From the NCBI RefSeq assembly GCF_036884295.1, contig NZ_CP145608.1:248001-312000 (forward strand): 64,000 nt of DNA, in the 5' to 3' direction. This document shows positions 59,994 through 61,072 of this stretch, piece after piece. How positions within the stretch are numbered: position 1 is the first letter of the stretch; each line of letters opens with the position of its first letter. The translations under genes and the position numbers were made by a program. This DNA is from Brochothrix thermosphacta DSM 20171 = FSL F6-1036 (GTDB taxonomy: Bacteria; Bacillota; Bacilli; Lactobacillales; Listeriaceae). The notes under the pieces were generated by a model. That model ran no database searches. It was given only the letters and a program-made list of their open reading frames with translations, and had not been told where the DNA came from.

Positions 59994-60806
59994 ATGACAA
60001 CGAAATTAGTAGATTTAGTAAATCCAGAGGTTATGGCACCAATCGTATCTTACGAGTTAAAAAACGCTTTGCGATTCACGCCATTAGCACAAGTAGACAA
60101 CACTTTAACTGGTACGCCAGGTGATAAATTGACTTTTCCAGCCTTTACTTATATTGGCGATGCTACGGATATCGCAGAAGGCGAAGCGATTCCATTGGAT
60201 AAAATCGGAACGACTACAAAAGAAGTCAAAGTAAAAAAAGCGGCAAAAGGTACAGAAATTACAGATGAAGCAGCATTGAGCGGATATGGAGACCCTGTCG
60301 GTGAATCCAATAAGCAACTAGGTTTGTCATTAGCTAACAAAGTAGATAATGACCTTTTAACAGCAGCAAAAGAAACGACTCAAAAAGCAACAATTGAAGC
60401 GACGGTTGAGGGATTATCTACAGCACTAGACGTGTTTAACGATGAAGATGGACAAGGATATGTTTTGATTGTAAGTCCCTTAGATGCTAGTAAATTACGT
60501 TTATCAGCAGGAAAAGAGTGGTTAAATGGTACAGAGTTAGGCGCTGAACGATTAATTTCAGGTTCTTACGGTTCGCTATTAGGTGCTGAGGTTGTTCGTT
60601 CTCGTAAATTAGCAGAAGGTGAAGCTCTGTTATTCAAAGTCGTTGCTAATCAACCTGCGCTTAAATTAGTTAGCAAACGAGCTGTGCAAGTAGAAACTGA
60701 TCGTGATATTACACGTAAAGTTACTATCATTACAGCTGACAATCACTATGCAGCTTATTTATACGATGAAACTAAAGTAATTGACTTAACGATCGCAAAA
60801 AAGTAG
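59994..60806 (+). CDS. Major capsid protein
   Basis: This 270-residue protein has HK97-fold features of the SPP1-like/N4-gp56 capsid type: [36 protein letters not shown] at the start and [41 protein letters not shown] at the end. AGGAGG precedes the ATG. The last codons are GCA AAA AAG TAG, which contain the A AAA AAG slippery heptamer at 60797-60803. A -1 shift there adds an Ig-like domain. Confidence 0.92.
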
Positions 60807-61072
60807 TTGACCCACAAGGAATCACACTGGACAAAACAGAATTAACTTTGGAAGTGGGACAAAGCGACACGCTAACAGCAACTGTTGTGCCTGAAAACGC
60901 AGAGGATAAAACAGTTACGTTTACATCTGGCAACGACAAGGTTGCGACAGTTACACCTAAGCAAGGCAAAGTGACAGCTGTTGCTAAAGGGGCTACCGAA
61001 ATCGAGGGTGTCACAGCTAATGGCATTGTGGTTAAATTGCCTGTCACTGTGACAGAGCCGGCAGGAGGTTAA
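60803..61072 (+). CDS. Ig-like (Big_2) extension of the capsid protein, expressed by -1 frameshift
   Basis: In the -1 frame the sequence after the capsid stop runs [44 protein letters not shown]...VTVTEPAGG, a Big_2 Ig-like domain of 89 residues. It has no ribosome site and no ATG, while the capsid gene ends in A AAA AAG directly before it. A minor share of capsid subunits would be 359 residues long and display the domain outside the head, probably binding cell-surface sugars. Confidence 0.82.

What the first reader, a model, noticed from the sequence alone, without database searches (positions are those of the whole stretch)
60780..61072. Capsid protein probably carries an Ig-like domain through -1 frameshifting at A AAA AAG
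The capsid gene ends GCA AAA AAG TAG, with a perfect A AAA AAG heptamer in the right phase at 60797-60803. The -1 frame is open straight on for 89 residues and encodes a Big_2 Ig-like domain with no start signal of its own. Ig-like extensions made by frameshift are known in phage capsid and tail proteins. In a prophage of this host group it predicts a 359-residue minor form.
Basis: partly seen in the sequence, partly recalled or inferred. Interest (0 to 1): 0.72.

Follow-up and report, generated by a model that had tools for sequence, protein, structure and literature searches.

The report
Known frameshifted Ig tail on capsid
Some copies of this prophage's shell protein are probably made with an extra antibody-like domain, because ribosomes slip back one base just before the stop codon; the same arrangement is already deposited for the near-identical Brochothrix phage NF5, so the finding is real but mostly known.

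Summary
The capsid gene (59994-60806, 270 aa) ends GCA AAA AAG TAG. An in-phase A AAA AAG heptamer lies at 60797-60803. The -1 frame runs on for 89 codons to TAA 61070 and encodes a confident Big_2 Ig-like domain with no start of its own. Among 377 ORFs of 100 aa or more in 404 kb of this genome, none other ends A AAA AAG-stop.
The -1 frameshift reading is well supported, but not new. Brochothrix phage NF5 (capsid 97.4% identical) is deposited with both the 270-aa gp6 and a two-piece gp6.1 whose coordinates give the same 359-aa fusion, and the NF5 capsid has a cryo-EM structure (9m66).
(1) The heptamer plus Ig segment sits behind two unrelated capsid families in Brochothrix phages, and equivalent -1 junctions sit behind capsids of many Enterococcus, Lactococcus, Streptococcus and Listeria phages. 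(2) In those relatives the first ~60 nt of the Ig segment fold into a covarying hairpin directly after the slip site. The four Brochothrix copies, which have the strongest heptamer, do not show it significantly.
Frameshifting itself remains inferred here; efficiency and function of the minor form are untested.

The parts
59994..60806 (+). major capsid protein gene, 270 aa (phrog_544 / Phage_capsid_4; 97.4% identical to NF5 gp6)
   Evidence: near-identical to PDB 9m66_A
60797..60803 (+). slippery heptamer A AAA AAG, in phase
   Evidence: conserved in NF5, BtpYZU01, BtpYZU03
60804..60806 (+). 0-frame stop codon TAG directly after the heptamer
60803..61072 (+). -1 frame extension, 89 aa, Big_2 Ig-like domain, plus TAA stop
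   Evidence: AlphaFold2 mean pLDDT 92.4
60807..60864 (+). weak stem (UUG.CCCAC with GUGGG.CAA) at the place where relatives carry a strong hairpin; not significant in this sequence
61077..61424 (+). head-tail connector gene following the cassette (Phage_connect_1)
   Evidence: 98.3% aa identity to BtpYZU03, 80% to NF5

Best explanation
Most ribosomes stop at TAG 60804 and make the 270-aa capsid protein. A minority, paused with tRNA-Lys on AAA and AAG and a stop codon next, slip back one base on A AAA AAG and read on through 89 codons. This gives a 359-aa capsid protein with a C-terminal Big_2 Ig-like domain, probably co-assembled as a minor, outward-facing subunit. Shown: the sequence anatomy, the conserved arrangement, purifying selection on the extension frame, and the matching NF5 record. 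Inferred: the slip itself, its frequency, incorporation, exposure and the usual proposed role in weak binding to surfaces.
For: Heptamer, phase and open frame; Big_2 and a confident Ig-fold model close to the lambda tail tube Ig domain and the phi29 capsid BIG domain. NF5 gp6/gp6.1 deposited as the same pair. The heptamer-stop-extension is kept behind two capsid families only ~20% identical (phrog_544 and phrog_840), with bases 1-2 of the codon before AAA AAG varying and its third A kept. Extension differences lie mostly at third codon positions of the -1 frame (window vs NF5: 3, 1, 14) and no indels occur in 267 nt. 43 of 53 distinct -1 junctions have a canonical heptamer in the last codons, against 0.12% per codon position in the same capsid genes. 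Review PMC5009743 states that such Ig extensions by -1 or +1 frameshifting are known in phage capsid and tail proteins.
Against: No protein data for this prophage. No significant downstream stimulator in the Brochothrix copies (z -0.53; about -0.2 to -0.4) and no upstream Shine-Dalgarno-like stimulator seen. PDB 9m66 models only the 270-aa form in seven chains, which averaging of a minor form would also give.
Confidence: 0.93

Rival explanations
1. The Ig ORF is translated on its own from an internal start (TTG 60848) as a small separate protein.
For: Annotators placed exactly this ORF in BtpYZU01 and BtpYZU03, and an equivalent one in Streptococcus 9871 and Lactococcus 98203.
Against: The start would cut off residues 1-15, including the first strand of the predicted domain. 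I see no Shine-Dalgarno. Several relatives have no ATG/GTG/TTG in that frame at all (L018, L019). It does not explain the conserved heptamer and -1 phase.
Confidence: 0.03
2. Transcriptional slippage on the run of six A makes mRNAs of altered length that put the Ig domain in frame.
For: A6 homopolymer at 60797-60802.
Against: Most relatives use C CCA AAA or A ACA AAG, with only 3-4 A, at the same place, and these carry a hairpin placed as for ribosomal frameshifting. A6 is short for polymerase slippage (own knowledge).
Confidence: 0.03
3. A decayed fusion or sequencing error: a one-base change separated a once in-frame capsid-Ig gene, and the extension is not expressed.
For: In-frame Ig fusions exist elsewhere (L057, L060, L061).
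Against: The same out-of-frame arrangement recurs in independently sequenced NF5, BtpYZU01, BtpYZU03 and dozens of other phages, with selection on the extension.
Confidence: 0.01

Closest known systems
Brochothrix phage NF5 gp6 / gp6.1 (HM144385, NC_015252; Kilcher et al. 2010, not held here)
   Same: Same host group, capsid 97.4% and extension 93.3% identical, same heptamer and stop, same 359-aa fusion by record coordinates. From memory the 2010 abstract reports peptide mass evidence for a -1 frameshift in the NF5 capsid.
   Different: The codon before the heptamer lysines is GTA instead of GCA; this copy is a prophage whose downstream connector gene is of the BtpYZU type.
Lactobacillus phage A2 and casei-group phages: major head protein -1 frameshift at CCCAAAA (PMC5009743, PMC6950654)
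   Same: -1 slip at the end of the head protein gene that adds an Ig-like domain.
   Different: Other heptamer and other capsid; no sequence comparison to A2 was run here.
Lactococcus ul36, Streptococcus thermophilus 9871-group and Enterococcus phages with this Ig family
   Same: Homologous Ig extension (52-63% identity), same -1 overlap at the capsid stop.
   Different: Different capsid (ul36-like, 287 aa), slip sites C CCA AAA, A AAA AAA or A ACA AAG, and a strong downstream hairpin.
Listeria phages PSA/A118/A500 and Lactococcus 28201-type head genes
   Same: C-terminal variants of structural proteins by frameshift.
   Different: +1 shift at CCC-stop in the Lactococcus loci and Listeria tail genes.
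phi29 gp8 and lambda gpV
   Same: Big_2-type domain at the C-terminus of a capsid or tail protein.
   Different: The domain is read in frame on every subunit (own knowledge).

Membership tests
Programmed -1 ribosomal frameshift site | X XXY YYZ heptamer in the 0-frame phase | tested here: met
   A AAA AAG 60797-60803; conserved in 4 Brochothrix phages
Programmed -1 ribosomal frameshift site | open -1 frame with coding selection | tested here: met
   89 codons; third-position bias of differences, no indels
Programmed -1 ribosomal frameshift site | stimulatory element downstream or upstream (usual, not obligatory) | tested here: not met
   window z -0.1 to -0.5; met in relatives. The stop codon directly after the heptamer may suffice (inference)
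Programmed -1 ribosomal frameshift site | both products found in cells or virions | not testable with these tools
   no proteomics held; NF5 record annotates both
Big_2 Ig-like domain (PF02368) | profile score above curated cut-off | tested here: met
   59.8 bits against 22.8
Big_2 Ig-like domain (PF02368) | Ig-like beta sandwich | tested here: met
   pLDDT 92.4; best match Big_2 domain 7quz, 0.8 A over 85 columns
NF5-type capsid (phrog_544) | homology over the full length | tested here: met

The most novel reading that the evidence does not exclude
The Ig segment of Gram-positive siphophages is a portable cassette that carries its own recoding signal: slip site, stop, and a hairpin written in the first 20 codons of the Ig domain. 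It can be exchanged behind unrelated capsids without matching reading frames. Hairpin strength may be balanced against heptamer strength to hold the dose of the minor form, and Brochothrix phages have reached the extreme of best heptamer with almost no hairpin. I found no prior report of the covarying hairpin, but the open-access library used is incomplete.
Probability: 0.45. Interest if true: 0.55.

Novelty: already known. Interest (0 to 1): 0.3.

Why it matters
It confirms that Brochothrix prophages of the NF5 type keep a two-form capsid, and shows that common annotation misreads the extension as a separate gene from an internal TTG. The comparison also suggests how Ig domains can move freely between phage structural genes: they travel with their own frameshift signal. 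That turns an old open question (why these domains are so often attached out of frame) into a reporter test.

Tried and rejected
RNAalifold on all 41 junctions gave no consensus, because the lower stem slides between registers; naming the structure by hand and counting pairs worked, but that structure was chosen after looking at the individual folds of the same sequences. The first in-frame control for the hairpin used pooled AT-rich codon usage and was misleading; repeated with each locus's own usage. The capsid AlphaFold model is poor (pLDDT 56) and was used only to retrieve the PDB title. Kilcher et al. 2010 is not in the library. Searches for a paper on PDB 9m66 found nothing. No related capsid was found in sampled genomes of the same genus and family.

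Full report
What is in the sequence. The gene 59994-60806 encodes a 270-residue capsid protein (Pfam Phage_capsid_4, E 6e-12; phrog_544 major head protein). It ends GCA AAA AAG TAG. A AAA AAG occupies 60797-60803 in the phase required for tandem -1 slippage, and the -1 frame is open from 60785 to 61069, giving 89 residues after the slip and a 359-residue fusion. The extension is a Big_2 domain (E 2.5e-16). AlphaFold2 predicts it at mean pLDDT 92.4 as an all-beta domain, with PDB matches that include a Big_2 domain of a Paenibacillus glucanase (best), the lambda tail tube Ig domain and the phi29 capsid. The first canonical start in that frame is TTG 60848, after the first strand.

Chance. In 404 kb of this genome, 377 ORFs of at least 100 aa were scored. 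One ends A AAA AAG-stop (this one), and 3 combine any canonical heptamer near the end with a -1 frame open for 60 codons or more.

Already recorded. Brochothrix phage NF5 has a capsid 97.4% identical. Its GenBank record lists gp6 at 4888-5700 and gp6.1 as a two-piece CDS at 4888-5966, which is 359 residues with a -1 shift. From memory, the abstract of Kilcher et al. 2010 (J Bacteriol 192:5441) reports peptide mass fingerprint evidence for a -1 frameshift in the NF5 capsid; the paper could not be opened here, so this is a lead. PDB 9m66 is the cryo-EM structure of the NF5 capsid with seven chains of Gp6. Review PMC5009743 describes Ig-like extensions of phage capsid and tail proteins by -1 or +1 frameshifting as an established phenomenon. 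PMC6950654 names a CCCAAAA slip site in the major head protein of a casei-group phage, and PMC9965538 a GGGAAAG site with an Ig-like extension in kuraviruses.

Conservation. NF5, BtpYZU03 and BtpYZU01 keep A AAA AAG-stop and the extension. BtpYZU01/03 carry a different capsid family (phrog_840, about 20% identity to the window's capsid), yet the Ig extension is 85-92% identical to the window's. Within the extension, differences fall mainly at third positions of the -1 frame and there are no indels. The window is itself mosaic: its capsid resembles NF5, its connector gene BtpYZU, so exchange has occurred around this segment.

Wider survey. Of 95 loci with this Ig family from viral and bacterial collections, 70 have the Ig frame overlapping the upstream gene at -1, 17 at +1 (nearly all with CCC before the stop, the Listeria-type +1 site), 3 are in-frame and 5 were not scored by the script, four of them because the locus is cut short near the junction. 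Among 53 distinct -1 junctions, 43 have a canonical heptamer next to the stop: C CCA AAA 33, A AAA AAA 6, A AAA AAG 4. Eight have A ACA AAG and two G GGG GAG. The background rate is 0.12% per codon position in the same genes.

A hairpin in the relatives. The 66 nt after the slip site are more stable than synonymous-codon controls: mean z -2.2 with pooled usage, -2.9 with own usage, 92% of sequences below -1. Neighbouring 66-nt windows of capsid and Ig give mean z between -0.5 and 0.1. In-frame Ig fusions give -0.1, -1.1 and -0.2. On 41 aligned junctions a 17-pair structure has 80.3% of cells paired, against 34-45% when slid, and a covariation score of 0.169 against 0.098 in shuffles (0 of 500 reach it). 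The clearest pair (columns 17 and 44) appears as AU 19, CG 9, UA 5, and by the reading frame both positions are third codon positions, so protein constraint does not explain it. Two cautions: the sequences are related, so these counts overstate independence, and the structure was chosen from folds of the same sequences.

The Brochothrix exception. The four Brochothrix copies have only a weak stem here (mean z -0.2 to -0.3; window z -0.53). By class the means run A AAA AAG about -0.3, C CCA AAA -2.9, A AAA AAA -3.1, A ACA AAG -3.9, G GGG GAG -4.7. This would fit a balance between heptamer and hairpin strength, but there are only five classes with few independent origins; it is a hypothesis.

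Mechanism and function. Best reading: a low-frequency -1 slip, helped by the stop codon in the A site, yields a minor capsid subunit with a surface Ig domain. The function is inferred from other phages (weak attachment to surfaces or carbohydrates; often dispensable). Nothing here measures it.

Noticed in passing
63072-63766: Tail assembly chaperone pair (PHROG tail chaperone) with a -1 overlap and an in-phase lambda-type G GGA AAG heptamer at 63371-63377; a standard G/GT frameshift.
   Followed up: partly
window about 42000-64000 and on to genome position about 322370 (L028 1-14369): The region matches Brochothrix temperate phages BL3 (early part), NF5 and BtpYZU01/03 (head and tail) in blocks: a mosaic prophage. 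Intactness was not tested.
   Followed up: partly
L015 2046-2270, L016 2046-2270, L020 2070-2261, L021 2070-2261: In published relatives the Ig extension is annotated as a separate gene ('major head protein', 'intimate attachment protein', hypothetical) from an internal TTG; probably a mis-annotation of a frameshifted extension.
   Followed up: yes
L019-L022, L025, L091, L093, L096 (Lactococcus and Streptococcus junctions): Slip site is A ACA AAG TAA, not a canonical heptamer, yet the -1 overlap is kept and the downstream hairpin is among the strongest. How the slip occurs there is unexplained.
   Followed up: partly
L023, L079, L103 and similar (Lactococcus): A relative of the Ig domain is joined by a +1 overlap at CCC-TGA or CCC-TAA behind another head gene, so both shift directions occur in this Ig family.
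   Followed up: partly
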